NCBI GenBank assembly: GCA_946186895.1
Contig: CAMHOW010000026.1
Location: forward strand, 1 to 33,081
Source of the DNA: an uncultured Fibrobacter sp.
GTDB lineage: Bacteria; Fibrobacterota; Fibrobacteria; Fibrobacterales; Fibrobacteraceae
DNA: 33,081 nt
Direction of reading: 5' to 3'
Below are positions 4,469 to 32,979 of the stretch, one piece after another. Below the pieces are notes generated by a model. The model saw only the letters and a list, made by a program, of their open reading frames with translations, had not been told where the DNA came from and made no database searches. Each line of letters begins with the position of its first letter. Within the stretch, counting starts at the first letter, position 1. The position numbers and the translations under genes were made by a program.

Positions 4469-6253
4469 TTAATTATCCGTTTCCTGACTACCTTCGATAA
4501 TCCACTTGCACAAATCTAGGATTCCATCATAGTCAGGCAGGCTCTTGATAAAGTCCGGTGACTTGCACCGTTCCACAAAGCCATTCCAGGCCCCTTCGTT
4601 TTTCGCCTTGATTCCCAGGTGCTCTTCGATAGCCCCGTGGGTCCAAACCCAGATGCCTTGACTTCTTAGCTTAGCATGAATGCTCCTAATGGGGCGCTCC
4701 GCCTCGGGCATAGAAGCCATCATGGAATAGGCCATAGAGGCACTGATGTTACTGTGCTTGCTTACAGGCAGGCCGTTGTTCAACCGAAGATGATGATGGA
4801 ACGCCAATTCCCTGAACAGATTCCGGCAGAACTTCACGTCGGGATCGTTGGCCTCCAAGAATCCATCGCGAGTAGCGGTGGTAAAGGCATAGTCCAAATC
4901 TACGATAGCCCGCACCGGCATGTCCATGGCATTTAGCACCTGCATGCTCTTACGGGTATTGCTCACGCCGCCCTGTCGCACCAGTGCACACTTGATGAGG
5001 GCAAAGGACTTTCCAGTAATCCGTTCAAACAGAGCCGGCAGCACTCGCCATTCTGTCTTACCTTCAGTGAGCAGCACATAATCAGCAAAAAGCAGTTCGT
5101 TGCTGTTGCTCAAGCTAAACAGCATCTGCAACTGGCTGGGAGCATCCTGCACAACCTGGTGTACGGCGTCCTCGATTCGCTTGCGCATGAAAGTGCCACG
5201 CTCCTTGTTCTTACGGATCAGGAGTGACGTACTTACATCTTCGCTGGTCACCATCTGGGCACTGTGGGTGGCGAACACAATCTGGTAACCTTCGTTGGAC
5301 AAGTTCTTCAAAGCCACACGAACCAGCTCCACCGCCTGAGGGTGCAAGAATAATTCCGGAGAATCAATCAAGAGCATGGTCCGGCTCAGATAGTGGTTAT
5401 TGTGATGCTTCTTGATTTCGGAAAGGTAACGGACTAGGGCCATCTGGATGGCACGCTGGGATCCTGCTCCCATGCGGTTGATATCTCGCTCAAAGCCGTC
5501 ATCCTCGTCAATAACCTTCAGACTTGCGGTTTTAAGGAAGGTTTCCAGCGTAGGAATGGGAATATCCAATTCCACACGGACACTTGGAAATAACGGTTGC
5601 AATTTTTCGTTGACTTCCCGGTCAAAAGACTTTATCTCGGCAGCCTGGTTTTCGCCACCCGGAGAAAGCAGATCGTTGAACTTTCCGATAATATCGTTGA
5701 ACTCTCCACCGAACCGACGTTCCAGAGGCTTGAAAATTTCATGCAGAAGCTTGGTGAAGGCCTTGTTGCCTTCGAAATCCCAAATAGCGATAGGTTCCGG
5801 GAACATGCGCTTAAAGGCATGCTTAAAATCGTCACCCACCCGCATCCAGCCCTTGCGGCTTCCGTTCTGCCGCTGTGGTGGCACCAGAGCCCACAGTTCC
5901 ACGTTCTCCGGAGGAACACCCGGTACCCGTTGGACCTTCTTTACTCGTAGGCTTTCGCCATTCAAGAACGGCACAATTTCCTTGGCCTTTTCTTCTCCCA
6001 AACGGGAGAGCACAGTCTCAGAGATGCCCTGAAAAAGCCCTTCCACCTCCACCGGTTCGTTGCTATCGTCAAAATACGAGACGTCTAACGAAAACGGAGA
6101 CAGCAACCACCGGATTCCCATGAGGATATTAGTCTTTCCCGCATTGTTGTAGCCTATCAAGGCGGTCATGTTGTTCAAGGGAAACGTCTGCCTGTGGATA
6201 GACCGCAGGTTGCAAATCGTAATCTCGGATAATCTTAACGGCTGGGGCTGCAT
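4469..6253 (-). CDS. OLD-family ATP-dependent nuclease (ABC-type ATPase with TOPRIM)
   Basis: This 594-aa protein joins an N-terminal ABC-type ATPase to a C-terminal TOPRIM nuclease, the layout of OLD-family (overcoming lysogenization defect) endonucleases. Seen: Walker A GYNNAGKT (residues 34-41); a signature-like MGAGSQRA region near 260; Walker B LLIDSPELFLHP near 300; H-loop FATHSAQM; then TOPRIM LLTEGKTEWRVLP (acidic Glu near 400) and the DLD pair in AIVDLDYAF near 450. The residue after the Walker B aspartate is Ser, where most relatives have Glu. ATGs at 6268 and 6253 and a TTG at 6280 are possible starts. 6253 is chosen because TATATT (complement of 6260-6265) lies exactly 6 nt before it, as for other leaderless genes here. 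No UvrD-like helicase is adjacent, so it is not a Gabija-type pair. Function in phage defence or DNA repair is inference. Confidence 0.85.
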   Translation of the reverse strand: MQPQPLRLSEITICNLRSIHRQTFPLNNMTALIGYNNAGKTNILMGIRWLLSPFSLDVSYFDDSNEPVEVEGLFQGISETVLSRLGEEKAKEIVPFLNGESLRVKKVQRVPGVPPENVELWALVPPQRQNGSRKGWMRVGDDFKHAFKRMFPEPIAIWDFEGNKAFTKLLHEIFKPLERRFGGEFNDIIGKFNDLLSPGGENQAAEIKSFDREVNEKLQPLFPSVRVELDIPIPTLETFLKTASLKVIDEDDGFERDINRMGAGSQRAIQMALVRYLSEIKKHHNNHYLSRTMLLIDSPELFLHPQAVELVRVALKNLSNEGYQIVFATHSAQMVTSEDVSTSLLIRKNKERGTFMRKRIEDAVHQVVQDAPSQLQMLFSLSNSNELLFADYVLLTEGKTEWRVLPALFERITGKSFALIKCALVRQGGVSNTRKSMQVLNAMDMPVRAIVDLDYAFTTATRDGFLEANDPDVKFCRNLFRELAFHHHLRLNNGLPVSKHSNISASMAYSMMASMPEAERPIRSIHAKLRSQGIWVWTHGAIEEHLGIKAKNEGAWNGFVERCKSPDFIKSLPDYDGILDLCKWIIEGSQETDN

Positions 6254-6299
6254 ACCTTGAATATACATTATTAGGGGCAAAAAATGCTACATTCTAAAC
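6254..6299. promoter_or_regulatory. Divergent leaderless promoters for the OLD nuclease and nrdR
   Basis: The 46-bp gap holds TATATT on the minus strand (complement of 6260-6265), 6 nt before the OLD ATG, and TACATT on the plus strand (6288-6293), 6 nt before the nrdR ATG. Transcription starting 6-7 nt after a -10 box would begin at the start codon in both directions. No convincing -35 hexamer or Shine-Dalgarno sequence is seen. Confidence 0.5.
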
Positions 6300-6743
6300 A
6301 TGATTTGTCCTTTCTGCAAGAACGACAACGACAAGGTAGTAGACAGCCGCGTCAGTGGCGACTCCATCAGGCGTCGCCGGGAATGTACGGCTTGCGGTCG
6401 CCGTTTTACCACACGGGAGTACATCGAAATCCAACCACTCATCGTGGTCAAGCGTAACGGCGCCCGTGAACCCTTCCAGCGAGAAAAGCTCCTGGCCGGC
6501 ATCGCCAACTCCTGCAAAAAACGCCCGGTGACTCAGGCCGCCATCGAAGAGATCGCCTCCAACATCGAGAACAACCTGATTTCCAACGACAACCTGGAAG
6601 TGACCTACGACCAGATTGGCAATTTGGTCATGCAAGAGCTGAAAAAGCTGGATCCGGTGGCCTATGTCCGGTTCGCCTCCGTCTACCGTGAATTCAAGGA
6701 AGTGGGCGAATTCGTGGACCAAATCAAGACTTTAGATAAATAG
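6300..6743 (+). CDS. nrdR: Transcriptional repressor NrdR
   Basis: NrdR represses ribonucleotide reductase genes by binding NrdR boxes and senses (d)ATP. The 147-aa length is typical. The zinc ribbon has MICPFC (Cys3, Cys6) and ECTACGRRFTT (Cys31, Cys34 by position), followed by an ATP-cone domain starting near residue 49 with VVKRNGAREPFQREKLLAGI. SVYREFKEVGEF near the end is the family C-terminal motif. It is divergent from the OLD nuclease with a 46-bp gap and appears to have a leaderless mRNA (TACATT, then 6 nt, then ATG). I see no ribonucleotide reductase gene in this window. Confidence 0.97.
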   Translation: MICPFCKNDNDKVVDSRVSGDSIRRRRECTACGRRFTTREYIEIQPLIVVKRNGAREPFQREKLLAGIANSCKKRPVTQAAIEEIASNIENNLISNDNLEVTYDQIGNLVMQELKKLDPVAYVRFASVYREFKEVGEFVDQIKTLDK

Positions 6744-6749
6744 AGGAAG

Positions 6750-6769
6750 CGTGGGCACCTTCGGTGCGA
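6750..6769 (+). repeat. Short palindromic direct repeat, copy 2
   Basis: CGTGGGCACC, a 2-nt spacer (TT), then CGGTGCGA, 6 nt after the nrdR stop. Same sequence and orientation as 4446-4466 except for the loop. The stem GCACC/GGTGC with downstream AAAAAA is not a terminator on its own. Confidence 0.6.
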
Positions 6770-6785
6770 AAAAACAAGCAATAAA

Positions 6786-6809
6786 AAAGCCTCGCTTAAG
6801 CGGGGCTTT
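6786..6809. terminator. Bidirectional terminator between nrdR and tRNA-Val
   Basis: AAAGCCTCGC and GCGGGGCTTT pair over 10 bp (one T-G wobble) around a TTAA loop. The minus strand carries the longer T-run (TTTTTTATT), so it mainly ends the leftward tRNA-Val transcript; on the plus strand it may also end nrdR. Confidence 0.75.
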
Positions 6810-6813
6810 ATCG

Positions 6814-6887
<74 letters not shown>

Positions 6888-6901
6888 AATAAGGTAGCCC
6901 A

Positions 6902-6930
6902 ATAGTAGAAACTTGGCCCCCTTTTGTCAA
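6902..6930 (-). promoter_or_regulatory. Promoter of tRNA-Val
   Basis: On the minus strand TTGACA (6925-6930) is followed after exactly 17 bp by TACTAT (6902-6907), 14 nt before the tRNA 5' end. This is a near-perfect sigma-70-type promoter and anchors the TAnnnT -10 pattern used for other calls. Confidence 0.85.
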
Positions 6931-6934
6931 GGGG

Positions 6935-7435
6935 TCAACGGGCATCTGGGTCAATCCAGTACCGCAAACGGCCCGTAATATGCACATTTGGCAAGGTGTC
7001 AATACACTTTCCGGAGCGGCAGTCCGGGGTATACAGATCCAAGTTGGCAGTCCAGGTGGAGTCGTCCTTCTGATCGAACCGGACAATACTGCTATCGGCA
7101 AGAATAGGAGCCTGGGTCAAAGAACCGTAGTTGAACCAGGAGTACTGCTGCACCACGGGATTATCCCCCAAAACCGGCCTGTTCACCATGATAGAGAACT
7201 GGTCCCCCCGCTTGCTCTCACTGGCTCTAGTCCTTACAATAAAATACCGGTGGCTATTCTTGATAAACGGAACTTCCACGTCGCTTTCGGCAAGTTCAAT
7301 GGTCCGTTCATCTCCACCATTGATTTTATACTTCAGGTAACCGCCACCATCGACTTCCCACCCCTCATTGATGTCGCTACAAGCCACAAGCAGAAAAGCT
7401 ACGGCAAGGCAGAGTTTTAAGCGGAAATCCGGCAT
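6935..7435 (-). CDS. Small lipoprotein of unknown function
   Basis: This 166-aa protein has a lipoprotein signal peptide: positively charged start, hydrophobic LCLAVAFLLVAC and a lipobox LVAC with the acylated cysteine near residue 19, followed by SDINEG. The mature part looks beta-rich and hydrophilic (YKINGGDERTIELAESDVEVPF; YFIVRTRAS; DLYTPDCRSGKC) with one CRSGKC cysteine pair. No family is recognised. It is divergent from the phosphopantetheinyl transferase gene with a 31-bp gap. TAGTTT (complement of 7443-7448) is 7 nt before the ATG, and the AGGGGTT between them could also act weakly as a ribosome binding site. It ends 4 nt before the -35 box of tRNA-Val. Confidence 0.75.
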   Translation of the reverse strand: MPDFRLKLCLAVAFLLVACSDINEGWEVDGGGYLKYKINGGDERTIELAESDVEVPFIKNSHRYFIVRTRASESKRGDQFSIMVNRPVLGDNPVVQQYSWFNYGSLTQAPILADSSIVRFDQKDDSTWTANLDLYTPDCRSGKCIDTLPNVHITGRLRYWIDPDAR

Positions 7436-7442
7436 AACCCCT

Positions 7443-7460
7443 AAACTAGAAAATTATCTT
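7443..7460. promoter_or_regulatory. Divergent -10 boxes in a 31-bp gap
   Basis: TAGTTT (complement of 7443-7448) is 7 nt before the lipoprotein ATG and TATCTT (7455-7460) is 6 nt before the phosphopantetheinyl transferase ATG. The boxes are only 6 bp apart, so polymerase could not occupy both at once. Confidence 0.4.
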
Positions 7461-7466
7461 TGGACT

Positions 7467-8030
7467 ATGGAAAACGAATGGCTCCCTGTTTCTACTTTAC
7501 ATGGCAAGGTCTACCTGACAGTTGTCCCCAAAGTAAGTCACAGGGAACAAATCTTCAAAAAATTATCCGAAGCCCTTAACCTGAAGGTTACCGGACAAGA
7601 TCTGAAAACCAAGGAGGGCTCTACTAGGCCCGAATTTCCGGAGCTTTCTATCGACGCCAACTGGACCCACTCCAAGGACACCTGCGTGCTGGCCTATTCC
7701 AGGGAATGTCGTGTAGGCATAGACCTAGAGTTTCACTCCAGGGACCGCCTAAAGCTTGCAGAGCGTTTTTTCTCCAAGGTTGAGGTAGAACGGTTGCATC
7801 AAGTTCTACAGGACGAAGGCGAAGAAGCAACCCGTAAGTTATTCTACACCCTATGGTGCCGCAAAGAAGCCTTTTTCAAATGTCGCGGTGGCGATTTTTT
7901 CGAAGGGACACTCCGAAAATCCATGCTTGAAACGAACGTGGATAATGTTCAACTAACAGACCTAGATCCGACAGAACTAGGCATCCAGGGAGACTGCTCC
8001 CTGTGCCTTGCCACCATGCCCTTAGACTAG
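7467..8030 (+). CDS. 4'-phosphopantetheinyl transferase superfamily protein (Sfp-like)
   Basis: Such enzymes move the phosphopantetheine arm of coenzyme A onto a serine of carrier proteins (ACP, PCP). The 187-aa protein shows the three superfamily landmarks: WTHSKDTCVLAYS (about residues 67-79; the usual form is hSHs..hhh.a), VGIDLE (about 85-90; metal-binding Asp and Glu), and the W-x2-KEAxxK motif seen as WCRKEAFFK (about 128-136). The frame opens upstream, but the ATG at 7467 is the start chosen: TATCTT lies 6 nt before it and MENEW is a plausible N-terminus. It ends in a CTAG shared with the convergent DUF6941-like gene. No polyketide or peptide synthetase genes are nearby, so it may be the housekeeping AcpS substitute. 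Confidence 0.88.
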   Translation: MENEWLPVSTLHGKVYLTVVPKVSHREQIFKKLSEALNLKVTGQDLKTKEGSTRPEFPELSIDANWTHSKDTCVLAYSRECRVGIDLEFHSRDRLKLAERFFSKVEVERLHQVLQDEGEEATRKLFYTLWCRKEAFFKCRGGDFFEGTLRKSMLETNVDNVQLTDLDPTELGIQGDCSLCLATMPLD

Positions 8031-8464: not shown

Positions 8465-8467
8465 AAA

Positions 8468-16298: not shown

Positions 16299-17134
16299 TT
16301 TTCCTCCTTTGGCAAGTCAGTCCTCTCCTTGCTGATGGGGAAGAACTGCACGTTCAGTTCGCACAACATGGTTTCACCGCTATCCGATGTGACAATGTCC
16401 AAAATTTCTTTCTGAAACATATCAATTTTTCGGATAATCCGTTCAAGCCCTGCGGCAGAAACACTCATGGTGGTGGTAGAAACGTTACGGCGAGCCGTAG
16501 TATAGCGGTCCAGGGCCTCCTTGCCCAGGTCAATCATCTGCTTCTGGAACTGATGCACAAATAGAGGCGAGATTTCCTTACCGCTAGTGACCGTACGGTT
16601 TACGGACCGATAGAATTCCCCTTCCTTTTCAATAAGGCCTAAATCAAGCAACAACTGCAGGGACTGCTTTGCTTGGGGTACAGAAATCTTTGGATTCAGG
16701 AACCAGGCCAGTTCCTGGATGTTGGACTCGTTGATATTCAGAACAGAAAGGGCCTCGCGAACTGCCACATGGTACCACTTGGCATAGTATTCCTGCTGGT
16801 TCCTGGTCAAGGACTTTACCGCCTTGGGCAGGAGTGCAGACATCTGGTCAAAAATCTGCTGCTTGGATTCTACCGACTGGGCGTGGGTAAAGTCCACCAT
16901 CAACTTGAAGTAGCGGCCTTCCTTTTCGTTCAGGCCAAGGGCTGCGATGAACTTCGGCACCATCTGGGGAGTCAGGGACTTACGCCCATGGACCAGGTCT
17001 AGATAGTAACCCGACGACGAATAACCCGCCTTCTGGGCGAAGGACCTGTAGGAGAAGTACCGCTGCAAAGACTTGCGATATTCGTAGTAATCCTGCAAAT
17101 ACTTGCGGTAATTGTAGTACGCAAAGATATTCAT
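16295..17134 (-). CDS. TIGR02147 family regulator-like protein
   Basis: This 279-aa protein matches the TIGR02147 family, a paralogous group known mainly from Fibrobacter: the opening NIFAYYNYRKYLQDYYEYRK, then YRSFAQKAGYSSSGYYLDLVHGRKSLTPQMVPKFIAALGL (about residues 29-68), which reads as an XRE-type helix-turn-helix, and the distal SVSAAGLERIIRKIDMFQKEIL near 222-243. A winged-helix-like middle (ISVPQAKQSLQLLLDLGLIEKEG) is also visible. It is followed by a lipoprotein gene with a 4-nt overlap. The upstream region holds four GAACAC sites. TAAATT (complement of 17142-17147) lies 7 nt before the ATG without an RBS, so the mRNA is probably leaderless. DNA binding and autoregulation are inference from the HTH and the repeats. 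Confidence 0.9.
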   Translation of the reverse strand: MNIFAYYNYRKYLQDYYEYRKSLQRYFSYRSFAQKAGYSSSGYYLDLVHGRKSLTPQMVPKFIAALGLNEKEGRYFKLMVDFTHAQSVESKQQIFDQMSALLPKAVKSLTRNQQEYYAKWYHVAVREALSVLNINESNIQELAWFLNPKISVPQAKQSLQLLLDLGLIEKEGEFYRSVNRTVTSGKEISPLFVHQFQKQMIDLGKEALDRYTTARRNVSTTTMSVSAAGLERIIRKIDMFQKEILDIVTSDSGETMLCELNVQFFPISKERTDLPKEEK

Positions 17135-17141
17135 CGGTTTA

Positions 17142-17147
17142 AATTTA
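17142..17147 (-). promoter_or_regulatory. -10 box of the TIGR02147 gene (leaderless)
   Basis: TAAATT on the minus strand is followed by 7 nt and then the ATG. No Shine-Dalgarno sequence lies between. A GGGAACAC site at 17163-17170 is near where the -35 region would be. Confidence 0.5.
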
Positions 17148-17358: not shown

Positions 17359-17364
17359 TAAAAT
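17359..17364 (+). promoter_or_regulatory. -10 box of the gene at 17372 (leaderless)
   Basis: TAAAAT followed by TGGAATC (7 nt) and ATG. The string CTAAAATTGG is identical to the -10 region of the well-formed rpmB promoter at 31445-31454, which supports the call. The -35 position falls in the T-tract of the preceding terminator. Confidence 0.55.
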
Positions 17365-17371: not shown

Positions 17372-18151
17372 ATGAAGCTTATCAAGAACCTCGCCGCCAA
17401 GCTATTGCGATTTGTAGGGATCCTTGCTGTCATCTACGTGAGCATGGTATTCTACCTGGCCCTGACAGAACGGCGGAACGCCTACCCCAGGGCAATCCCA
17501 CACAAGGAAGCCCGCGCCGCCATTGACGGGAAAGCCCAGGGCATCAGCTGCACCTTGGAAGACGGGACCATTCTCGAAGGCTGGAAACTGGGCGAAACGG
17601 GAACGCCCACCCTGCTCTACTACCCCGATGCCGACGAAGACGCCGCCCAGTTCTTAGCGGAACTGGACCGCATCGATGGAATCACGCTCACCACCTTTAA
17701 TTATCGCGGTTCCGGCAACAACAAGGGAACGCCGTCAGGAGACAACTGGAGTCCAGACTCTCGGGAAATCCTGGAATGCGCCTCCCAGGTGGGCGGGAAG
17801 CGCCCTGAATATATCGTAGGCCGTGGCACGGGGGCTATTCCGGCATTCAACAACAGCGACAGTCAATCAAAGCTCATCTTGATAGACCCTGTTGAAAGCA
17901 TCGCCGAAGCCCTTGTATACAAGTACAGATTCCTCTACCCAGAGTTCCTCGTTCGGGCGAAAGACTCCATAAACACTGGGGAAAACAGCACTTCCATATA
18001 CCAAGTTGGAATAATGCTGGACCGTGCTCAATTTGCCGACAGAAGCCAAAAAAGTATCCAAAAATTAAGGGGGACAACCGTCTGGAAACGAGACGGGGCC
18101 TCATTTAGAGACATCCTGGAAAAAATTTTGCGTAGCTATACTCCAGACTAA
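17372..18151 (+). CDS. Membrane-anchored alpha/beta-hydrolase-like protein lacking the nucleophile serine
   Basis: The 259-aa protein begins with a membrane segment (LLRFVGILAVIYVSMVFYLAL, about residues 12-32) and then reads as an alpha/beta-hydrolase fold: EDGTILEGWKL, TPTLLYYPDADEDAAQFL and TTFNYRGSGNNKGTPS (about 109-124), which matches the family block NYRGxGxSxG. The nucleophile elbow, expected as GxSxG, reads GRGTG with Thr at 153 (ACG codon at 17828-17830). KLILIDPVESI follows where the next core strand is expected. It may therefore be inactive or a Thr-variant. It is followed after 149 bp by two more unknown proteins. No Shine-Dalgarno sequence precedes the ATG. Membership is judged by motif order only. 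Confidence 0.7.
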   Translation: MKLIKNLAAKLLRFVGILAVIYVSMVFYLALTERRNAYPRAIPHKEARAAIDGKAQGISCTLEDGTILEGWKLGETGTPTLLYYPDADEDAAQFLAELDRIDGITLTTFNYRGSGNNKGTPSGDNWSPDSREILECASQVGGKRPEYIVGRGTGAIPAFNNSDSQSKLILIDPVESIAEALVYKYRFLYPEFLVRAKDSINTGENSTSIYQVGIMLDRAQFADRSQKSIQKLRGTTVWKRDGASFRDILEKILRSYTPD

Positions 18152-19422: not shown

Positions 19423-20150
19423 CCTGATTTACTGAAATCTTCTACGGAAAGCTCACCTGCCTCTAGCTTGAGGTAGGTGAGTTTTTTTATCCACTCGCCA
19501 GGAGAAGCCACTAGGCCCGACTTAACCGGCCAGACGCCAGGAATATGATGGTGACCGTGAATACAAACCTGGCAATTGTTTTTTTCTATAACTCGTTCGG
19601 CCCAGGCCAGGTATTCTTCCAACTTGATAACCTTGTCTTCGCCAGCCTTGCGGCTGCTACGCCCCACAAAACGGGCGAGAGCCATGCCCCAGTCCGGGTG
19701 GATCTGCCGGAACAACCAGCGGTTCAGGGGAAGGTTCAGTATCTTGCGGTACAGGCGGTAGCTCCAGTCAGAACGGGCCACCCCATCGCCATGAGTAAAG
19801 AAAAAGGTCTTGCCCTGAAGTTCAAGCGTTAGACTAGAACAGACCTGAATACCCAGATTATCCGGGAAAAAGTCGCCATACGCAAAGTCGTGGTTGCCCC
19901 GCAACAGATGAACTTGAACTCCCGAACGAACCAACTCGGACAAGGCGAAGAACAAAGGGAAATGCTCCTTGTTCACATAATAGCGGTATTCGTACCAGAA
20001 CTCAAACAGGTCTCCCAAGATGACCACATGGCTAGCCTCACCTTTCCAGGACTCCAGAAGGTCAATCAATAGTTTTTCCCTATGGGGTACAGCTCCGGGA
20101 GGATTAACTCCCAAATGCGTATCTCCAAGAAAGTATGCGGGCTTTTCCAT
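19419..20150 (-). CDS. lpxH: UDP-2,3-diacylglucosamine diphosphatase (LpxH-type)
   Basis: LpxH hydrolyses UDP-2,3-diacylglucosamine to lipid X in lipid A synthesis at the cytosolic face of the inner membrane. The 243-aa protein shows the full calcineurin-like metallophosphoesterase series: GDTHLG (about 9-14), GDLFEFW (about 46-52), RGNHD (about 84-88), HGDG (about 123-126) and the late GHHH (about 204-207), with FGD/FWYEYR features typical of LpxH. The ATG at 20150 is chosen because TAAATT (complement of 20158-20163) lies 7 nt upstream and the motif then begins where the family begins; an ATG at 20171 would lie in the promoter. It is divergent from a lipoprotein gene and convergent with the unknown membrane protein. 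Confidence 0.9.
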   Translation of the reverse strand: MEKPAYFLGDTHLGVNPPGAVPHREKLLIDLLESWKGEASHVVILGDLFEFWYEYRYYVNKEHFPLFFALSELVRSGVQVHLLRGNHDFAYGDFFPDNLGIQVCSSLTLELQGKTFFFTHGDGVARSDWSYRLYRKILNLPLNRWLFRQIHPDWGMALARFVGRSSRKAGEDKVIKLEEYLAWAERVIEKNNCQVCIHGHHHIPGVWPVKSGLVASPGEWIKKLTYLKLEAGELSVEDFSKSG

Positions 20151-20194
20151 AGAATGAAATTTAGAATTCAAATTTCAGATTCTAAATTAAGGCT
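20151..20194. promoter_or_regulatory. Mirror-image bidirectional leaderless promoter (lpxH / lipoprotein)
   Basis: Rightward: TTTAGA (20160-20165), 17 bp, TAAATT (20183-20188), 6 nt, ATG. Leftward: TTTAGA (complement of 20181-20186), 17 bp, TAAATT (complement of 20158-20163), 7 nt, ATG. Each -35 hexamer overlaps the -10 of the other gene. No RBS is present in either direction. Confidence 0.6.
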
Positions 20195-20770
20195 ATGCAG
20201 TTTTGGTCACACATTCGGGTACTCCTACTTTGGAATTTGGCAATTCTTGCCAGTGCCTGCTCCGTGAATTTGGTCCAAGGCGATAACGCCATTAAAGAGA
20301 AGTCTTCGTCAGAACAAAAGTCTCTGTTCAACAAGATTTCCCTGACCCTCGGAAACGACACCCTCTGGCTTGCGCAGGAACTGCTAGATGCATACAATCA
20401 AGCTGTTCCCCAAGAAGTATACCCTAGTGACAGGTGCACGGGATTCGCCAATATCCAAGCCCAGGTAACACAGAATGCCGCAACAAGTCCTTGGAGTATT
20501 CCCTTGTTCGTAATCCCCTTCTGGCCCGTGATGCCCATAGACGAAACCTGGACCTACACGCTGCAGGCACAGATCCTCTGCGACGGCGTTGTCGCCAAGC
20601 AGGCGGAATACAAGGAAGAAGAAACCATCAAGGCCGAGTTTTACGGAAAACTCCGCAGCGACCTTTTGAACAACGCTTCTAGAGACATGCACCGAAAACT
20701 GGTCCAGAGGTTCGCCTTCGAGCTAAATTACAACTACAATGCCGATATGGGAGTCCGGAGCGATTACTAA
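20195..20770 (+). CDS. Lipoprotein of unknown function
   Basis: The 191-aa protein has a lipoprotein signal peptide (VLLLWNLAILASAC, lipobox ASAC with Cys near 22). The mature part contains LFNKISLTLGNDTLWLAQELLDAYNQ, a hydrophobic aromatic stretch SPWSIPLFVIPFWPVMPIDETWTYTLQAQILCDG (about residues 98-131), and a charged amphipathic tail. A cysteine pair (CTGF, ILCDG) may form a disulfide. The family is not recognised. The stop TAA (20768-20770) forms the first three bases of the -10 box of rsmI. It may act in the envelope, given its neighbours lpxH and lnt, but that is inference. Confidence 0.75.
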   Translation: MQFWSHIRVLLLWNLAILASACSVNLVQGDNAIKEKSSSEQKSLFNKISLTLGNDTLWLAQELLDAYNQAVPQEVYPSDRCTGFANIQAQVTQNAATSPWSIPLFVIPFWPVMPIDETWTYTLQAQILCDGVVAKQAEYKEEETIKAEFYGKLRSDLLNNASRDMHRKLVQRFAFELNYNYNADMGVRSDY

Positions 20771-20773
20771 ATT
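20768..20773 (+). promoter_or_regulatory. -10 box of rsmI (leaderless), overlapping a stop codon
   Basis: TAAATT followed by TAGTCC (6 nt) and ATG. Its TAA is the stop of the preceding lipoprotein gene. No good -35 is seen at the expected place (20745-20750). Confidence 0.45.
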
Positions 20774-20779: not shown

Positions 20780-21466
20780 ATGGCACATACCCTGTACATC
20801 GTGGCGACCCCCATCGGGAACATGGAAGACATCACCTACCGTGCGGTCCGTATACTGAAAGAAGTTCCCCTGGTGCTTGCCGAAGACACTCGCCACACCC
20901 GGATCCTCTTTGACAACTTCGGGATTTCTACCCCCATGGAAGCCTACCACGACTTCAACAAAGAGGCCGTCACCCCGAAATACGTGAGCTACCTGAAAGA
21001 ACAGGGGGATATAGCCCTGGTCAGCGACGCTGGCACCCCAGGCATTGCAGACCCGGCCTTCAACCTGGTGCGGGAATGCGTGCGAGAGGGTATCGACGTA
21101 CGCTCCGTTCCGGGCCCCTGTGCCATGGTCACCGCCCTGGTGAGCAGTGGCATGCCCACGGACCACTTTGCCTTCCAGTACTTTTCACCCAAGAAAAGCG
21201 CCCAGCGCCTGCACCTTCTAGAAAAGCTTAAAGACGAAGAGGCCACCCAGATTTTTTACGCCAGCCCCCATAACGTGGACAAGTTCGTAGACGAAATCCG
21301 CACCGTGTTCGGGGATATCAAGATTGCGCTGATGCGTGAACTGACCAAGAAGTTCGAGGAACACCTGATCGGTACCCCTACCGAAATCCTGGAGCGTTTC
21401 AAGAGCCGCCCGCCTAAAGGGGAGTTCGTACTGATCTTCAATCCAAAGGACAAGAGCGGGCTGTGA
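20780..21466 (+). CDS. rsmI: 16S rRNA (cytidine-1402-2'-O)-methyltransferase
   Basis: RsmI methylates the ribose of C1402 in the ribosomal P site using S-adenosylmethionine. The 228-aa protein has the SAM-dependent tetrapyrrole-methylase-like fold: LYIVATPIGNMEDITYRA (residues 4-21), AEDTRHTRILF (about 34-44), VSDAGTPGIADP (about 79-90), the VPGPCAMVTAL segment (about 111-121) and RELTKKFEE (about 181-189). It lacks the extra C-terminal region of about 55 residues of E. coli RsmI, which is common in shorter homologues. Its stop overlaps the GTG start of lnt (GTGA), so the two are translationally coupled. Confidence 0.95.
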   Translation: MAHTLYIVATPIGNMEDITYRAVRILKEVPLVLAEDTRHTRILFDNFGISTPMEAYHDFNKEAVTPKYVSYLKEQGDIALVSDAGTPGIADPAFNLVRECVREGIDVRSVPGPCAMVTALVSSGMPTDHFAFQYFSPKKSAQRLHLLEKLKDEEATQIFYASPHNVDKFVDEIRTVFGDIKIALMRELTKKFEEHLIGTPTEILERFKSRPPKGEFVLIFNPKDKSGL

Positions 21467-24018: not shown

Positions 24019-24102
24019 ACGATTCCTCTTACAGAAAGATATATAGTGAAATCGAGAAAAGAACACTTTTTGAAGATTTTTTTTACTTTATGATATTGTT
24101 AT

Positions 24103-24717
24103 ATGCTTTTTCGCAGCTTTTCTTGCCATTTTTTGATATTTATCACTTTTTTCCTATGGGGAAACGCCCTTTCTGCCCCACTGACGTTCCATGACGAAAA
24201 CAGAGTCCTAAGCGCGACTCAAGGCCATTATCTGGAAATTTTAGCCCAGGAACTGCAACAAAAGACCGGATTTACCCTTACCATCGTTTTATTGAACGAC
24301 GGCCATAACAAGCGGGAATTCTTACCCGGTGACAACGATCTGCTTCTGTATACCGCCTTCAAGCAACAGCAGCACTTTGTAAAACTGGGCAAAAACCTGG
24401 AATCCGAACTTTCCAGAACCGAAATCGAGAAGCTCCAGCAGAAATTTTTGTTTCCAGAATACAAGTCCGCGCGCTACGACAAAGGCACCCTGCAACTGGC
24501 CTACCAGCTTACAAAAACCCTTATCGAAAAGAAGGGGGGAAGCCTGAGCACCCTCCCGCCCGAATCCTCTCCGGAGGGTTCACTCAATGTAGCCGGCTGG
24601 GTCTTTGTCGCCACCATCTTCTCCCTGCTGTTTTACGCCCTCTACAGAAGGGGGCGGCACACCCGCATGGGCAAAAACAGCAGACGTTTCCAGAACGGTC
24701 GGTTCGGCTGGAGGTAA
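24103..24717 (+). CDS. Membrane-anchored TPM-domain-like protein
   Basis: The 204-aa protein has a cleavable signal peptide (FLIFITFFLWGNALSA, cleavage near residue 25), a periplasmic domain and one C-terminal membrane helix (VAGWVFVATIFSLLFYALY, about 165-183) followed by a basic tail ending GRFGWR. The periplasmic part (VLSATQGHYLEILAQELQQKTGFTLTIVLLND) follows the start of a TPM (YgcG) domain: the LS...L..L..E....G.Q..VV pattern. Later family motifs are weak, so it may be a divergent or truncated member. TATGAT lies 8 nt before the ATG. It ends 5 nt before the next gene, and a GGAGG overlapping its last codons and the start of its stop serves that gene. Confidence 0.6.
   Translation: MLFRSFSCHFLIFITFFLWGNALSAPLTFHDENRVLSATQGHYLEILAQELQQKTGFTLTIVLLNDGHNKREFLPGDNDLLLYTAFKQQQHFVKLGKNLESELSRTEIEKLQQKFLFPEYKSARYDKGTLQLAYQLTKTLIEKKGGSLSTLPPESSPEGSLNVAGWVFVATIFSLLFYALYRRGRHTRMGKNSRRFQNGRFGWR
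24710..24714 (+). promoter_or_regulatory. Strong RBS of the gene at 24723
   Basis: GGAGG ends just before the TAA stop (24715-24717) and is 8 nt from the ATG. It shows that true Shine-Dalgarno sites are used in operon-internal positions in this genome, in contrast to the first genes of transcripts. Confidence 0.6.
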
Positions 24718-27018: not shown

Positions 27019-27085
27019 CAAGCGGTTTCGAACCGCTGTTGCGGGAATGAAAATCCCGAGTCCTGGGCCACTAGACGATAGGGGC
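27013..27085 (-). tRNA. tRNA-Glu (anticodon TTC)
   Basis: The 73-nt minus-strand cloverleaf has D-arm GTCTAGTGGCCCAGGAC as in other bacterial tRNA-Glu, anticodon stem CGGGA/TCCCG around TTTTCAT (TTC at 34-36), T-arm AGCGG-TTCGAAA-CCGCT and acceptor GCCCCTA/TGGGGGT with two wobble pairs (T6-G67 and G1-T72). The discriminator is A; CCA is not encoded. Confidence 0.93.
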
Positions 27086-27099
27086 GTTAAGTAAGGCCA

Positions 27100-27127
27100 A
27101 ATATAGGAAACTTTATTTCTTTGTAAA
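27100..27127 (-). promoter_or_regulatory. Promoter of tRNA-Glu
   Basis: TTTACA (complement of 27122-27127), 16 bp, TATATT (complement of 27100-27105), then 14 nt to the tRNA 5' end. Confidence 0.75.
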
Positions 27128-27163
27128 GGGTGGCTCCCTAAAATTTTTACATTTTCATAAAAG

Positions 27164-28738
27164 ATGTTGAAAAAGTGGCTGAAAAAATCCTTTTTGAAAG
27201 GCATTTTGCGGTTTCTGCCGCTGGCAATAGCCTCCAGCGCAGCCGATGGCGCCCTACTTTGGGGAATCCGTTCCTTCATGGACCTGCTCTCCCAGGAGTC
27301 TCCCTTCACCCTCACGGAATGGGTGGCCCTGATGGTCCTTTTGACAGCACTTAGACTTATTTTCCTCTTCGCCAAAGTCAGGCAGAACGAAACCTGGATT
27401 TTTCAGATCAGTTCTTCCCTGCGAAGCTGGTTTATCCGCAAGCTTAGGAATCTCTCGCCACGATTTTTCCATAGCAAAGACAGTGGCGCCCAAACCGAAA
27501 TGGCCTTCGACGCCATCCATACCATCCAAAGTAACGGAAGCGTCTTTTTCCAGGCGACCCAGGCGGCCCTGCAGCTGCTGATTTTTATTCCGGTGCTGCT
27601 CTACATTTCCTGGCCCCTGACCCTGTTCCTTTTCCTGATTATCACGCCCCTGGTAGCCTGGCTCCAACGTAAAATCCACCGCATGGGCCCCGAAGAAGAA
27701 TCCCTGCTGTTCGAACGGTCGAAATTTCGGAACAACTTCGACACAACCCGAAGACTTTTCCGCACCTGGAGTGCCCCCCAGGAACGGGCCATTCTTTCTT
27801 CGAACCTCCAGAAGAATTCTAGGGAGCTGACCCAAAATACCAAGCGTTTCTCTATCCGCAAGAACGGTCTTTCCCTGGTGATGGAATCCGTCTCTGTGCT
27901 GTCCATGATTTTCGTGCTCACCTTCTGCGCTATCCTTATCGCCCGAGGCTGGATGGACAGCAAGGGGCTTATCCTGTTCTGCTCTGCCGTACTCCTGAGT
28001 TACAAGCCCGTCAAGGAATGCTCCCGCGCCCTGCCGGAATTCCGGGCCCTGGTAAGCGCCTGCCATTTCCTTTTCAAGTTCGAAACCGTTCCCGAAAAAT
28101 CTCCTGCCCCGAGCGCCAGCGGCGAAAACCTTTCCATCCGTCAGGGAGCCTTCTCCTACGGTGGTCCCGACTGCAATGCCGACACCCCCGAAACCCAAGT
28201 TTACCGTAACCTGAACCTGAACTGGAGCGTAAAGCAACCCGTGCTTTTGAAGGGGAAAAACGGTGCCGGCAAAACCACCCTGTTTAGGCTTATCGCCAAT
28301 CTGGAAGAATGGAACCATGGTGATATTTGTGTCCCCTATCTTAGCGCAGCCGATGGATTTTTCCTCATGTCCCAAGACTTGGAGCTCCCACCGAAAAGCA
28401 TTCTGAAGGACCTGTTGGCGCGCTCCCAGTCCACCCTGTTGCAAGACTTTATAGAGACATCCCGAATCCAGAAGTTGCTCTCCAAAGAAGCCCTCTCCGG
28501 AGGGGAGCGCGCCAAGGTGGCCTTGCTGTGGGCGCTGGCGTCCCCGTCCAAAGTCTTGCTGCTGGACGAGCCCCTGGCCGGCATTGCCCTCGCCGACCGG
28601 GCCCCCATTTTGGAAAAGCTTTTGGAGACCTGCGAAAAACTTGGCAAGTGGCTTTTGATTTCCAGTCACGACCGCTTGCCCGAAACCCTAGAAAGCAAGT
28701 TCCTGCTGGTAGATTTGGACCATGAAAAGAATCTATAA
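27164..28738 (+). CDS. ABC transporter, fused permease and ATP-binding domain
   Basis: The 524-aa half-transporter has five to six membrane helices in residues 1-290 and an ATPase domain from about 320: Walker A LKGKNGAGKTT (about 360-371), Q-loop FLMSQDLELP (about 403-412), signature LSGGE (about 443-447), Walker B VLLLDEP (about 461-467) and H-loop SSHD (about 498-501). The fold is the exporter type (CydCD/MsbA-like). Its neighbours, an ICMT-like membrane protein and waaA, suggest a role in lipid or glycolipid export, but the substrate is not shown. Its final 17 bases overlap the next gene. TACATT lies 10 nt before the ATG. Confidence 0.9.
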   Translation: MLKKWLKKSFLKGILRFLPLAIASSAADGALLWGIRSFMDLLSQESPFTLTEWVALMVLLTALRLIFLFAKVRQNETWIFQISSSLRSWFIRKLRNLSPRFFHSKDSGAQTEMAFDAIHTIQSNGSVFFQATQAALQLLIFIPVLLYISWPLTLFLFLIITPLVAWLQRKIHRMGPEEESLLFERSKFRNNFDTTRRLFRTWSAPQERAILSSNLQKNSRELTQNTKRFSIRKNGLSLVMESVSVLSMIFVLTFCAILIARGWMDSKGLILFCSAVLLSYKPVKECSRALPEFRALVSACHFLFKFETVPEKSPAPSASGENLSIRQGAFSYGGPDCNADTPETQVYRNLNLNWSVKQPVLLKGKNGAGKTTLFRLIANLEEWNHGDICVPYLSAADGFFLMSQDLELPPKSILKDLLARSQSTLLQDFIETSRIQKLLSKEALSGGERAKVALLWALASPSKVLLLDEPLAGIALADRAPILEKLLETCEKLGKWLLISSHDRLPETLESKFLLVDLDHEKNL

Positions 28739-30476: not shown

Positions 30477-30481
30477 AGATT

Positions 30482-31426
30482 ATGAAGAAACTGATTCTCG
30501 CAACCCCCCGTGGATTCTGCGCCGGAGTAGACCGCGCCATCCACGTGGTGGAAAAGGCCCTGGAAAAATTCGGTTCCCCCATCTACGTTCGCCATGAGAT
30601 AGTCCATAACCGTTATGTGGTGGAAACCCTGAAATCTAAGGGCGTCATCTTCGTAGACGAGCTGGACGAAGTCCCCGAAGGTTCGGTGGTCATCTTCTCG
30701 GCCCACGGGGTGGCAGACCACATCTACCAAGACGCCGAAGCAAAACACCTGCAGGTGGTGGACGCTACCTGCCCGCTGGTGCGCAAAGTCCATTTCAGCG
30801 CCAAGAGGCACTACTCAGCAGGCCGCCACATCATCCTTATCGGCCATGCCGGACATGCCGAGGTGGAAGGCACCCTGGGGCAACTTCCCGAAGGGGCCAT
30901 CACCCTCATCAGGAACGAAGCCGACATTGAAAAGCTTGCCTTCCAGGACGACAAGGAAATCGCCTATATCACACAGACCACCCTTTCCGTGGCAGAAACC
31001 CGAAAGATTATCGCCACCCTGAAGGCAAAATTTCCAAATATCATCGGACCTGAGGCCGGAGACCTGTGTTACGCCACGGGGAACCGCCAGGCCGCCGTCC
31101 TAGACCTCTGTTCCAAGGTCGACCTGCTCCTGGTGGTGGGCGCCAAGAATTCCTCCAATTCCTCGCGCCTTATGGAACTGGGACAGGAACAGGGTATCAA
31201 GAGCCACCTCATTGAGTCCGTGAACGACCTAAATCCGGACTGGTTCCAGGGGGTGGAGACCGTGGGGCTCTCCAGCGGGGCCAGCGCTCCGGAAATCCTG
31301 GTCCAGGAGGTGGTGGACTGGATCAAGGCGAAATTTACCCCCGTAGAGGTGGAAAATTTCGTAAAATTGGTGGAATCTACCAAATTTAACCTGCCAAAGG
31401 AGTTACAAGACGCCCCTCAGTCTTGA
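30482..31426 (+). CDS. ispH: 4-hydroxy-3-methylbut-2-enyl diphosphate reductase
   Basis: IspH (LytB) is the [4Fe-4S] enzyme that makes IPP and DMAPP in the last MEP step. The 314-aa protein has the three cluster cysteines: Cys13 in PRGFCAGVDRA, Cys97 in VDATCPLV, and Cys196 in GDLCYATGNRQ. HEIVHN (about 39-44), FSAHG, GHAGHAEVEG and NSSNSSRL complete the family series. It begins 5 nt after waaA and is probably cotranscribed with it. Its stop codon lies inside the -35 box of rpmB. Confidence 0.97.
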   Translation: MKKLILATPRGFCAGVDRAIHVVEKALEKFGSPIYVRHEIVHNRYVVETLKSKGVIFVDELDEVPEGSVVIFSAHGVADHIYQDAEAKHLQVVDATCPLVRKVHFSAKRHYSAGRHIILIGHAGHAEVEGTLGQLPEGAITLIRNEADIEKLAFQDDKEIAYITQTTLSVAETRKIIATLKAKFPNIIGPEAGDLCYATGNRQAAVLDLCSKVDLLLVVGAKNSSNSSRLMELGQEQGIKSHLIESVNDLNPDWFQGVETVGLSSGASAPEILVQEVVDWIKAKFTPVEVENFVKLVESTKFNLPKELQDAPQS

Positions 31427-31451
31427 CAATTCCCCCACTTTTAACTAAAAT
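31423..31451 (+). promoter_or_regulatory. Promoter of rpmB
   Basis: TTGACA (31423-31428), exactly 17 bp, TAAAAT (31446-31451). The -35 overlaps the ispH stop codon. A leader of about 25 nt follows with GGAG 7 nt before the ATG, so this gene is not leaderless. Together with the tRNA promoters it fixes the -10 pattern used in other calls. Confidence 0.85.
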
Positions 31452-31482
31452 TGGTGTCCGTAAAAAACAACGGAGTTTAATT

Positions 31483-31704
31483 ATGAGCCGTATTTGTGAA
31501 GTCACCGGAAAAGCCGGCCTCGTGGGCAACATGGTTTCCCACTCTAACCGTAAGAAGTTGATGAAGCAGCTTCCGAACCTCCAGAAGAAGCGTTTCTATA
31601 TCCCCGAAGAAGATCGCTGGGTGACCCTCCGCGTGAGCGCCGCTGGTCTCCGCACTATCAGCAAGTGCGGTATCCAGGCTGTTGCCCAGGAACTCGGCAT
31701 CTAA
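31483..31704 (+). CDS. rpmB: Large ribosomal subunit protein bL28
   Basis: The 73-aa protein reads MSRICEVTGKAGLVGNMVSH with the family's C-x2-T-GK start, RKKLMKQLPNLQKKRFYIP and LRVSAAGLRTISKCGI near the C-terminus. It is a basic ribosomal protein of usual length. The start ATG at 31483 is preceded by CGGAG; a longer frame from 31423 is only the leader. It has its own promoter and a strong terminator, so it is an independent unit. Confidence 0.97.
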   Translation: MSRICEVTGKAGLVGNMVSHSNRKKLMKQLPNLQKKRFYIPEEDRWVTLRVSAAGLRTISKCGIQAVAQELGI

Positions 31705-31724
31705 TTCTCGCCAAGCGAAAATAA

Positions 31725-31755
31725 AAAACCGCCAAAGCATCACTTTGGCGGTATT
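31725..31755. terminator. Bidirectional terminator between rpmB and the exonuclease gene
   Basis: CCGCCAAAG (31729-31737) and CTTTGGCGG (31743-31751) form a perfect 9-bp stem with loop CATCA; T-rich tracts follow on both strands. Confidence 0.9.
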
Positions 31756-31773
31756 TTGTGTATTCTAAACAGC

Positions 31774-32421
31774 CTACTTATTTATAAACTGCGGAGTGCC
31801 CTTGTACTTGGCAAGGTTAGCCATGATGCTCCCCAGTTCCCAGTCCTTTTCCTTGAACCGGCGGCGGAGGATGGCCACAAACACTTCCATAAGCATCTCG
31901 CAGTCATAGACGGCACGGTGCATCTTTTCGGAATCAATGCTCATGGCAATCTCGTTACGACGCTTGAACAGGTTCGCCATATAACCCAGCTTGTGATTTT
32001 CCAATTCCGGCAAAATCGTCCTAGAAACAACGAGGCTATCAATCACGGGGTTCCCGGGAACCAGCTGAGGGTTCTTGGCGTAGGCCGCCCGCAAGAAGCT
32101 GGCATCGAAGTTCGCGTTATGGGCAATCAAGATAGAACCCTGACCGCAAAAAGCCGTAAAGCCCTTGAGACATTCCCCTACAGCAGGAGCGTTCTCCACA
32201 TCCTTGTCGTAGATATGGTTCACGTTAGAGGCCTCGGCGGGAATCAGCATGTTGGGCTTCACGAAGGTTTCAAATTCGGACAGCAGTTTGGGCACTACCT
32301 TGCCGTTCTTAGTTTCTACCGTAAACTTAACGGCACCGATTTCAATGATTTCATCTTTCTTGTTATCAAGACCTGTCGTTTCCAGGTCAAAAGCCACGAA
32401 TTTCGGAGCTAAAGCAATCAT
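31774..32421 (-). CDS. DEDDh 3'-5' exonuclease (DnaQ/PolC epsilon-like)
   Basis: The 215-aa protein has all three exonuclease motifs: Exo I FDLETTG (about 11-17), Exo II HNANFDASFL (about 101-110) and Exo III HRAVYDCEML (about 168-177; DEDDh type). It most resembles the epsilon subunit or PolC-type exonuclease; at 215 aa it could be the proofreading subunit or a stand-alone nuclease. The start at 32421 (MIALAPKF) is preceded by AGGAAGAG. It follows the acyltransferase-like gene after 16 nt in the same direction. No polymerase is adjacent. Confidence 0.9.
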   Translation of the reverse strand: MIALAPKFVAFDLETTGLDNKKDEIIEIGAVKFTVETKNGKVVPKLLSEFETFVKPNMLIPAEASNVNHIYDKDVENAPAVGECLKGFTAFCGQGSILIAHNANFDASFLRAAYAKNPQLVPGNPVIDSLVVSRTILPELENHKLGYMANLFKRRNEIAMSIDSEKMHRAVYDCEMLMEVFVAILRRRFKEKDWELGSIMANLAKYKGTPQFINK

Positions 32422-32437
32422 GGATCTCTTCCTTTTT

Positions 32438-32953
32438 TTAACTAGCACAAAAATACTTAATTTTCACGACAATTGTTGACATGGGAAAAGGAATTACAAA
32501 TCGGTCCCAAGTGTTCAAGGTATAATGCAATCCGTACTGAACCTGAATTTCCCACAAAGGACATCCCGATTTCCTTGACAGCCAAAAAGATCCGGGTTTT
32601 GCAACACCGGCAGGGCCACGAGGGCCGTCCAGGGCCATAGCCGCAAACTGGCCGGCATTCAAGGATTCCAGCAAATGACGCACGTTGAGCGCACCATGGC
32701 TGTCAGACCCCCGGGTAACCTTATACCCTAGGCGCCTGGCTGTCTCGGTGAAAAGCTCCCCGTCCCTGGACTCCGAAATCAAAGCATGGACGCCGCCACC
32801 CTTAAAAGCGGCACAACAAGCCAGCAAGTCCCGATGCCATATTCCAAGAATGCCAGGACCATAACCCTCGGGGGCCTCCAGGCGCACTCTGAGGGTCCGC
32901 AACCATAGGGACACCACCAAAGAGGCCAATTTCGCCTTGAAAACGCCAAACAT
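32438..32953 (-). CDS. Lysophospholipid acyltransferase-like protein (DUF374)
   Basis: The 171-aa protein shows the DUF374/LPLAT blocks: ILGIWHRDLL (about 34-43; the HxxxD-like H-R-D site), ISESRDGELFTETARRLGY (about 59-77), TRGSDSHGAL (about 80-89) and ALDGPRGPAGVAKPGSFWLSRKSG (about 107-130). It ends soon after, around IPFPMSTIVVKIKYF, a little shorter than usual. Such proteins are predicted to acylate lipid A or phospholipid precursors at the inner membrane. TAATTT (complement of 32961-32966) is 7 nt before the ATG and no RBS is seen, so the mRNA may be leaderless. Confidence 0.8.
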   Translation of the reverse strand: MFGVFKAKLASLVVSLWLRTLRVRLEAPEGYGPGILGIWHRDLLACCAAFKGGGVHALISESRDGELFTETARRLGYKVTRGSDSHGALNVRHLLESLNAGQFAAMALDGPRGPAGVAKPGSFWLSRKSGCPLWEIQVQYGLHYTLNTWDRFVIPFPMSTIVVKIKYFCAS

Positions 32954-32979
32954 GGCCTAAAAATTAGTTTTTTTAGGCC
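32954..32979. repeat. Perfect inverted repeat abutting the start codon
   Basis: GGCCTAAAAA (32954-32963) and TTTTTAGGCC (32970-32979) with a 6-bp centre. The left arm ends exactly at the acyltransferase ATG, and the centre includes the leftward -10 box, so it could be an operator for that gene. Confidence 0.5.

What the first reader, a model, noticed from the sequence alone, without database searches (positions are those of the whole stretch)
6253..32966. Many transcripts appear leaderless: a TAnnnT box exactly 6-7 nt before ATG
Known-type promoters here (tRNA-Val, tRNA-Glu, tRNA-Cys, rpmB) fix a -10 consensus TAnnnT. The same box lies 6 nt (OLD nuclease, nrdR, phosphopantetheinyl transferase, lipoprotein 20195, rsmI) or 7 nt (lipoprotein 7435, TIGR02147, 17372, lpxH, acyltransferase 32953) before the start codon, with no Shine-Dalgarno. 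TAnnnT is expected about once in 64 positions at equal base composition, so ten cases at two fixed positions is far above chance, allowing for AT-rich gaps. Operon-internal genes have normal RBSs. It predicts +1 at or next to the A of ATG for the first genes of transcripts.
Basis: partly seen in the sequence, partly recalled or inferred. Interest (0 to 1): 0.7.

Follow-up and report, generated by a model that had tools for sequence, protein, structure and literature searches.

The report
Leaderless gene starts in rumen Fibrobacter
In this rumen Fibrobacter many genes that head a transcript carry a likely promoter box six to ten letters before the start codon and no ribosome-binding site, so their messages are predicted to begin at or within a few letters of the start codon, a way of starting genes described so far mainly in other bacterial groups.

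Summary
In an independent 400-kb sample of the same genome, with starts called blind to upstream signals, 42 of 180 transcript-first genes have TAnnnT at spacing 6-8 (14.1 in shuffles); operon-internal genes 3 of 108, E. coli 3 of 112, Thermus as positive control 13 of 89. The box is better written TTTnC-TAtaTT (5th base T in 95 of 112) and also stands at Fibrobacter tRNA promoters. A pyrimidine precedes ATG in 70 of 78 spacing-6/7 genes against 171 of 300 others; SD is nearly absent, 2 of 112. lpxH keeps the box in 27 of 28 distinct orthologue upstreams, none with an SD. Best reading: -10 elements, mostly without a -35, that likely start transcription at or next to ATG (leaderless mRNAs) for roughly 17-31% of transcript-first genes. 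No 5' ends were available. Leaderless genes are a known kind; nine paper searches listed no report of them in Fibrobacter. A Bacteroidetes-like -10 box and the lack of an RpoD-length sigma in these genomes make it a variant.

The parts
6260..6265 (-). box TATATT, gap 6 to ATG at 6253 (OLD-like ATPase/TOPRIM gene)
   Evidence: the signal-blind caller preferred an in-frame ATG at 6268
6288..6293 (+). box TACATT, gap 6 to ATG at 6300 (nrdR)
   Evidence: NrdR zinc ribbon model starts at residue 1; box at gap 6-8 in 17 of 30 orthologue loci, gap 5-10 in 21 of 30
7443..7448 (-). box TAGTTT, gap 7 to ATG at 7435 (putative lipoprotein)
   Evidence: no Pfam match
7455..7460 (+). box TATCTT, gap 6 to ATG at 7467 (phosphopantetheinyl transferase)
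17142..17147 (-). box TAAATT, gap 7 to ATG at 17134 (TIGR02147 family)
   Evidence: model starts at residue 1
17359..17364 (+). box TAAAAT, gap 7 to ATG at 17372 (unknown protein)
20158..20163 (-). box TAAATT, gap 7 to ATG at 20150 (lpxH)
   Evidence: kept at gap 6-8 in 47 of 48 named loci, 27 of 28 distinct upstreams
20183..20188 (+). box TAAATT, gap 6 to ATG at 20195 (putative lipoprotein)
   Evidence: the signal-blind caller chose TTG 20237
20768..20773 (+). box TAAATT, gap 6 to ATG at 20780 (rsmI); its TAA is the stop codon of the gene 20195-20770
   Evidence: kept at gap 6-8 in 37 of 69 loci, 22 of 48 distinct upstreams
2129..2134 (-). further candidate: box TAACTT, gap 9 to ATG at 2119 (ispD)
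2144..2149 (+). further candidate: box TATCTT, gap 9 to ATG at 2159 (monomeric NADP isocitrate dehydrogenase)
24089..24094 (+). further candidate: box TATGAT, gap 8 to ATG at 24103 (unknown protein)
   Evidence: no NCBIfam match
27148..27153 (+). further candidate: box TACATT, gap 10 to ATG at 27164 (ABC transporter-like)
6902..6907 (-). tRNA-Val -10 box TACTAT with TTGACA 17 nt upstream: yardstick for the box
27100..27105 (-). tRNA-Glu -10 box TATATT, preceded by TTTCC, with TTTACA 16 nt upstream: yardstick
33010..33015 (+). box TATATT before a tRNA-Cys that is cut by the window end: yardstick
   Evidence: the same promoter stands before an intact tRNA-Cys in relative G016

Best explanation
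The boxes are likely the -10 elements of this Fibrobacter's ordinary promoters, set so close to the start codon that transcription is predicted to begin at, or within a few letters of, the A of ATG, which would give leaderless mRNAs for roughly a sixth to a third of the genes that head a transcript. Shown by the calls: position, refined consensus (TTTnC-TAtaTT), enrichment in transcript-first genes only, near-absence of SD, pyrimidine before ATG, identity with the tRNA-promoter box, conservation in relatives. Inferred: that RNA polymerase starts there; that a short sigma factor reads the box, mostly without a -35; that ribosomes engage the 5'-terminal AUG without an SD. Boxes at spacing 8-10 would give 5' leaders of 0 to about 4 nt. 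Other first genes and many operon-internal genes use SD leaders.
For: Position: 42 of 180 first genes vs 14.1 shuffled, internal 3 of 108 vs 4.6, E. coli 3 of 112 vs 6.4, Thermus 13 of 89 vs 1.5; with TAnnTT 37 of 180 vs 6.1; peak survives when boxes that could be in-frame stop codons are excluded. De novo EM without seed or position finds t..ttTTtCTAtaT at the same place in 129 SD-less first genes. Start point: pyrimidine before ATG in 70 of 78 vs 171 of 300 (p=1.4e-8); SD in 2 of 112 box genes vs 180 of 426 other first genes. Same box at 26 of 29 Fibrobacteraceae tRNA upstreams. Orthologues: lpxH 47 of 48, rsmI 37 of 69; nrdR 21 of 30 at gap 5-10. Spacing measured for the like element in Flavobacterium fits (PMC6847099, passages).
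Against: No 5' ends. In G056+G008 (AT-rich, same family) there is no excess in first genes (9 of 62 vs 7.7) and an unexplained one in internal genes (6 of 33 vs 2.5). G054 is weak: no excess in the start-choice-free count (9 vs 10.0), some in the larger sample (21 of 137 vs 11.2). 26 of 48 distinct rsmI upstreams and 13 of 30 nrdR loci lack a box at gap 6-8. Spacing-8 genes lack the pyrimidine signature (11 of 19). Background at gaps 14-43 is not low (5.5 per position of 180). Starts are called by a home-made caller.
Confidence: 0.87

Rival explanations
1. The box is a translation element: an AU-rich, structure-poor stretch inside a longer leader that helps ribosomes without SD, as proposed for Bacteroidetes.
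For: Upstream regions are AT-rich; in Flavobacterium 87% of leaders exceed 10 nt and initiation relies on A-rich context (PMC6847099, passages); first genes without a box show A at -3 in 119 of 300.
Against: The same extended box stands at tRNA promoters, which are not translated; no peak at internal genes of G000, which are translated too; fixed spacing and pyrimidine before ATG fit a start point; lpxH keeps box and spacing while flanks diverge.
Confidence: 0.07
2. Short-leader rather than leaderless: the boxes are promoters but most transcripts begin 2-8 nt before the ATG, or upstream promoters make the main, leadered transcript.
For: The peak reaches to spacing 10; upstream TAnnnT sites are common (5.5 per position of 180); rsmI could be read through from the gene 9 nt upstream.
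Against: Mode at 6-7; pyrimidine before ATG in 70 of 78; SD in 2 of 112, and in 0 of 48 lpxH upstreams.
Confidence: 0.15
3. Chance and AT-rich composition, helped by choosing start codons that fit.
For: First-gene upstreams are AT-rich (63% in divergent genes); 3 of the 10 starts were not chosen by the blind caller.
Against: Dinucleotide shuffles, internal genes, E. coli and neighbouring spacings; orthologue conservation.
Confidence: 0.02

Closest known systems
TA-led (leaderless) genes of bacteria, Zheng et al. 2011 (PMC3160421; passages)
   Same: TANNNT about 12 bp (first T) before the start codon, no SD, read as -10 boxes of leaderless genes; detected in 207 of 953 bacterial genomes
   Different: Fibrobacter is not mentioned in the main text; here the box reads TAnnTT with a TTTnC prefix
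-10 motif next to ORFs in Deinococcus-Thermus (PMC12340547; passages and section 11)
   Same: -10 box at fixed short distance to the ORF drives leaderless mRNAs, -35 not needed
   Different: Tested by experiment there, not here; in Thermus pTT27 the 5th base is T in 2 of 13 boxes against 95 of 112 here
Bacteroidetes sigma-ABfr promoters (-7 element TAnnTTTG; PMC6847099, PMC7366714; passages)
   Same: Fibrobacteraceae tRNA promoters read TAtaTTTG, leaderless genes TAtaTTT; sigma factors are short
   Different: Bacteroidetes mRNAs are leadered (87% of F. johnsoniae leaders over 10 nt; about 3.7% of B. thetaiotaomicron 5' UTRs under 10 nt); Fibrobacter tRNA promoters have a TTGACA-like -35 (14 of 26 with 5-6 matches) instead of TTTG
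Leaderless transcriptome of Mycobacterium tuberculosis (PMC3898074; passages)
   Same: TANNNT without a conserved -35, many leaderless mRNAs, divergent pairs included
   Different: Mapped by sequencing there; other phylum and other box prefix

Membership tests
Bacterial leaderless (TA-led) genes | TANNNT box at fixed distance, about 12 bp from its first T to the start codon, above chance | tested here: met
   gap 6-8 (first T at -12 to -14): 42 of 180 vs 14.1 shuffled
Bacterial leaderless (TA-led) genes | no Shine-Dalgarno sequence at the same genes | tested here: met
   SD 4-mer in 2 of 112 box genes vs 180 of 426 other first genes
Bacterial leaderless (TA-led) genes | confined to genes that begin a transcript | tested here: met
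   internal genes 3 of 108 vs 4.6 in G000; exception: 6 of 33 vs 2.5 in G056+G008; first/internal is judged by gene distance, not by transcripts
Bacterial leaderless (TA-led) genes | transcription start at the start codon (5' UTR of 0-5 nt) | not testable with these tools
   no RNA data; indirect: pyrimidine before ATG in 70 of 78
Deinococcus-Thermus type -10 motif | plain TANNNT consensus | tested here: not met
   5th base T in 95 of 112 and TTTnC prefix; works like it, but is not the same motif
Bacteroidetes sigma-ABfr promoters | -7 element TAnnTTTG | tested here: met
   tRNA promoters: box positions 5-8 read T .69, T 1.0 (by selection), T .77, G .77 in 26 boxes
Bacteroidetes sigma-ABfr promoters | TTTG at about -33 and no TTGACA | tested here: not met
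   14 of 26 tRNA boxes have 5-6 matches to TTGACA at spacer 15-19
Bacteroidetes sigma-ABfr promoters | primary sigma factor short, without region 1.1 | tested here: inconclusive
   no RpoD-length match in 26 of 26 Fibrobacteraceae genomes, sigma proteins read are about 270-285 aa; the region 1.1 model matches 0 of 60 phylum genomes, also those with a long RpoD, and only 6 of 14 controls; which sigma is primary is unknown

The most novel reading that the evidence does not exclude
Fibrobacteraceae have given up the long RpoD; a short sigma factor reads a Bacteroidetes-type box (TTTnC-TAtaTTt) with little need of a -35, and this promoter reform went together with moving promoters onto start codons, so that a large class of mRNAs became leaderless: a Bacteroidetes-like transcription start joined to a Deinococcus-like translation start. 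Sampled genomes without a long RpoD show TAnnTT at the start codon in 116 of 777 first genes (25.1 expected), those with one in 6 of 247 (4.8 expected).
Probability: 0.3. Interest if true: 0.72.

Novelty: new variant of a known kind. Interest (0 to 1): 0.5.

Why it matters
Fibrobacter is a main cellulose degrader of herbivore guts (recalled). If a sixth to a third of its transcript-first genes are leaderless, gene-start annotation and expression designs for this group should change: a promoter cassette would have to end at the ATG. It also offers close relatives in which orthologous genes gained or lost the arrangement (nrdR, rsmI) while lpxH kept it, so leaderless and SD starts of one gene can be compared. 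The apparent tie to the loss of an RpoD-length sigma makes the old question why some bacteria became rich in leaderless genes testable.

Tried and rejected
Chance and composition: rejected by shuffles, internal genes, neighbouring spacings and E. coli. Artefact of choosing the first ATG after an in-frame TAA/TAG: boxes beginning TA[TC] alone keep the peak; a 6-and-9 pattern in G032 prompted the check. A start-choice-free count gave 64 vs 30.7 for G000 and 19 vs 8.9 for G032 but no excess in G054 (9 vs 10.0), G056 (9 vs 8.9) or G008 (5 vs 5.9). The first 100-kb samples of the outer families and of G054 showed no clear peak; the larger G054 sample did (21 of 137 vs 11.2). A -35 at leaderless genes: 10 of 112 match TTGACA at 5-6 letters vs 3.5 expected, so at most a minority has one. 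tRNA promoters of outer families were too few to compare (6 upstreams printed). The region 1.1 model was not informative. Rfam found only the three tRNAs in the window.

Rows left out: genes with under 60 nt or 80 nt of upstream sequence; genes at stretch edges and same-strand genes 20-60 nt apart (classes 'edge' and 'mid'), which are in neither the first nor the internal counts. Duplicate tRNA upstreams were dropped; 3 of 29 Fibrobacteraceae tRNA upstreams had no box. Of the 80 loci the 11 non-Fibrobacteria loci were not used; of the 69 used, 21 had no lpxH hit. One search used 30 loci each for nrdR, rsmI and lpxH, of 58, 40 and 43 places listed; one lpxH locus had no start.
Full report
What was claimed. 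All ten boxes are there, and none of the ten starts has an SD 4-mer. The base before ATG is a pyrimidine in 9 of the 10 and the 5th base of the box is T in 9 of the 10 (read). Some starts are fixed independently by domain borders: the NrdR zinc-ribbon model begins at residue 1, TIGR02147 at residue 1 and monomeric isocitrate dehydrogenase at residue 2. The window has four more candidates at spacing 8-10 (2119-, 2159+, 24103+, 27164+). By my own reading of the listing the window has 20 starts not within 50 nt of a same-strand gene; 13 of the 20 have a box at 6-10 and 9 have one at 6-7.

Where the window comes from. It is contig 26 of a 2.8-Mb, 134-contig genome. Its RsmI is 99% identical to that of a Fibrobacter MAG from sheep abomasum, and the record titles of the next 50 loci name Fibrobacter, with one Fibrobacterales.

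Test in the rest of the genome. I wrote a gene caller that uses coding statistics only and never looks upstream. In 20 stretches of 20 kb, window excluded, TAnnnT counts at spacing 0-12 in 180 transcript-first genes are 5,1,0,2,1,5,11,20,12,9,9,2,3, with a mean of 5.5 at spacings 14-43; 108 internal genes are flat. At spacing 6-8 the count is 42 of 180 against 14.1 +- 3.6 in dinucleotide shuffles, 0 of 200 of which reach it; internal 3 of 108 vs 4.6. With TAnnTT it is 37 of 180 vs 6.1. Controls through the same pipeline: E. coli K-12 3 of 112 vs 6.4; Thermus thermophilus plasmid pTT27, of a phylum known for leaderless genes, 13 of 89 vs 1.5 in first and 5 of 73 vs 0.8 in internal genes.

Refined box. 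De novo EM on the last 34 nt of the 129 SD-less first genes, without seed or position, gives t..ttTTtCTAtaT with weight 0.43, mostly at the same spacing. The 112 box genes (spacing 6-8) of four Fibrobacteraceae genomes read TTTnC-TA(T)(a/t)TT-T, 5th base T in 95 of 112. The family's tRNA upstreams (26 of 29 with a box) read TTTTC-TAtaTT-TG; 14 of the 26 match TTGACA at 5-6 letters at spacer 15-19 (0.8 expected), the leaderless genes in 10 of 112 (3.5 expected). So the box at the start codon is the element that serves tRNA genes, usually without the -35.

Start point. Among ATG first genes with spacing 6 or 7, 70 of 78 have a pyrimidine before the A, against 171 of 300 genes without a box (p=1.4e-8); spacing 8 shows 11 of 19, spacing 9 18 of 23, spacing 10 12 of 15. 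Pyrimidine then purine is the usual start-point signature of bacterial RNA polymerase (recalled). In Flavobacterium the TAnnTTTG element was taken as a promoter when 4-5 nt before the start point (PMC6847099, passages), which equals TAnnTT plus 6-7 nt and would put +1 on the A of ATG.

Conservation. lpxH: 47 of 48 loci, or 27 of 28 after collapsing similar upstreams, keep TAnnnT at spacing 6-8 (shuffles 3.7, maximum 9), with no SD in the 48. rsmI: 37 of 69, or 22 of 48 distinct (shuffles 4.4, maximum 11), including termite-gut Fibrimonadaceae; 11 of 69 have an SD. nrdR: 17 of 30 at spacing 6-8 and 21 of 30 at 5-10; five loci of the same genus and the four from other families (L047-L050) lack it, and two of these four have an SD instead. 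Genes thus switch between the two start modes within one genus.

How common. The excess over shuffles with TAnnTT is 31 of 180 first genes (17%); the EM weight, which counts the motif anywhere in 34 nt, gives 0.43 x 129 of 180 (31%). The caller found 7 of the 10 window starts, so 17% is likely low.

Distribution and sigma factors. The excess is clear in G000, G016 and G032, weaker in G054 (all family f1), and present in G028 of family f2 (14 of 135 vs 5.5). It is not detected in G056+G008 (AT-rich, family f1; 9 of 62 vs 7.7, with 6 of 33 vs 2.5 in internal genes), G058 (2 of 40 vs 1.0), f6 (4 of 87 vs 5.9) or f3/f4 (5 of 82 vs 5.9), and is marginal in f5+f9 (7 of 80 vs 3.1). Searching TIGR02393 in 60 genomes of the phylum, an RpoD-length frame (490-566 aa, about 280-317 bits) turns up in 27 of 31 genomes outside f1 and genus g7, but the best match is only about 186-194 bits in the 26 Fibrobacteraceae genomes, among them single-contig G032, and in the three g7 genomes; no genome reaches the curated cut-off of 354 bits, which 9 of 14 controls do. 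Complete G032 has three short sigma factors. Pooled by sigma type, TAnnTT at the start codon is 116 of 777 vs 25.1 without a long RpoD and 6 of 247 vs 4.8 with one. The genomes are related, so this may be one evolutionary event; G002 (no long RpoD) shows no TAnnnT excess (3 of 42 vs 3.5), and G007 and G057 (long RpoD) lean positive. The link is a lead, not a result.

Compared with the literature. Leaderless genes with a TANNNT box are known in many bacteria (PMC3160421, passages), with experiments in Deinococcus-Thermus (PMC12340547, passages and one section) and mapped starts in Mycobacterium (PMC3898074, passages). A 2011 logo survey calls the SD of Fibrobacteres 'less obvious but still detectable' (PMC3155529, passages), as expected of a mixed system. 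Nine searches of the held library were made, five naming Fibrobacter (with leaderless; transcription start site; promoter and primer extension; dRNA-seq; sigma factor). No title or abstract start listed there reports leaderless genes or mapped start sites in Fibrobacter. Most subscription journals and all supplementary tables were out of reach, and the wide surveys (Zheng 2011; PMC12340547 Fig. S7) may hold a Fibrobacter entry that I could not see.

Verdict. Observation confirmed and sharpened; interpretation well supported by sequence and comparison, unproven without 5' ends. A new variant of a known kind: leaderless starts with a Bacteroidetes-like -10 box.

Noticed in passing
window 20768-20773: The rsmI box shares its TAA with the stop codon of the upstream lipoprotein gene; the same overlap is seen in several relatives (L160, L172-L175, L178, L179, L183).
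   Followed up: partly
window 6254-6299, 7436-7466, 20151-20194; L140 near 4898: Divergent gene pairs with a box on each side share spacers of only 31-46 bp (26 bp in L140), so the two promoters can hardly be used at once. Divergent pairs at most 60 bp apart: 8 of 42 in G000, 2 of 30 in E. coli.
   Followed up: partly
L222, L226, L230 (own genome); L221, L224, L229 (G032): Fibrobacteraceae genomes lack an RpoD-length sigma factor and have short ones; one of them (L226, L229) has an altered stretch WWIKAYITRAI where a long RpoD of the phylum (L219) has WWIRQAISRAI.
   Followed up: partly
window 28710-28715: An operon-internal gene (28722+) also has TAGATT at gap 6, inside the coding sequence of the gene before it; chance or an internal promoter.
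   Followed up: no
pooled first genes without a box (four genomes): A at position -3 in 119 of 300 genes, like the Kozak-type context reported for Flavobacterium (PMC6847099, passages).
   Followed up: no
window 4469-6253: OLD-type ATPase with TOPRIM domain, divergent from nrdR.
   Followed up: no
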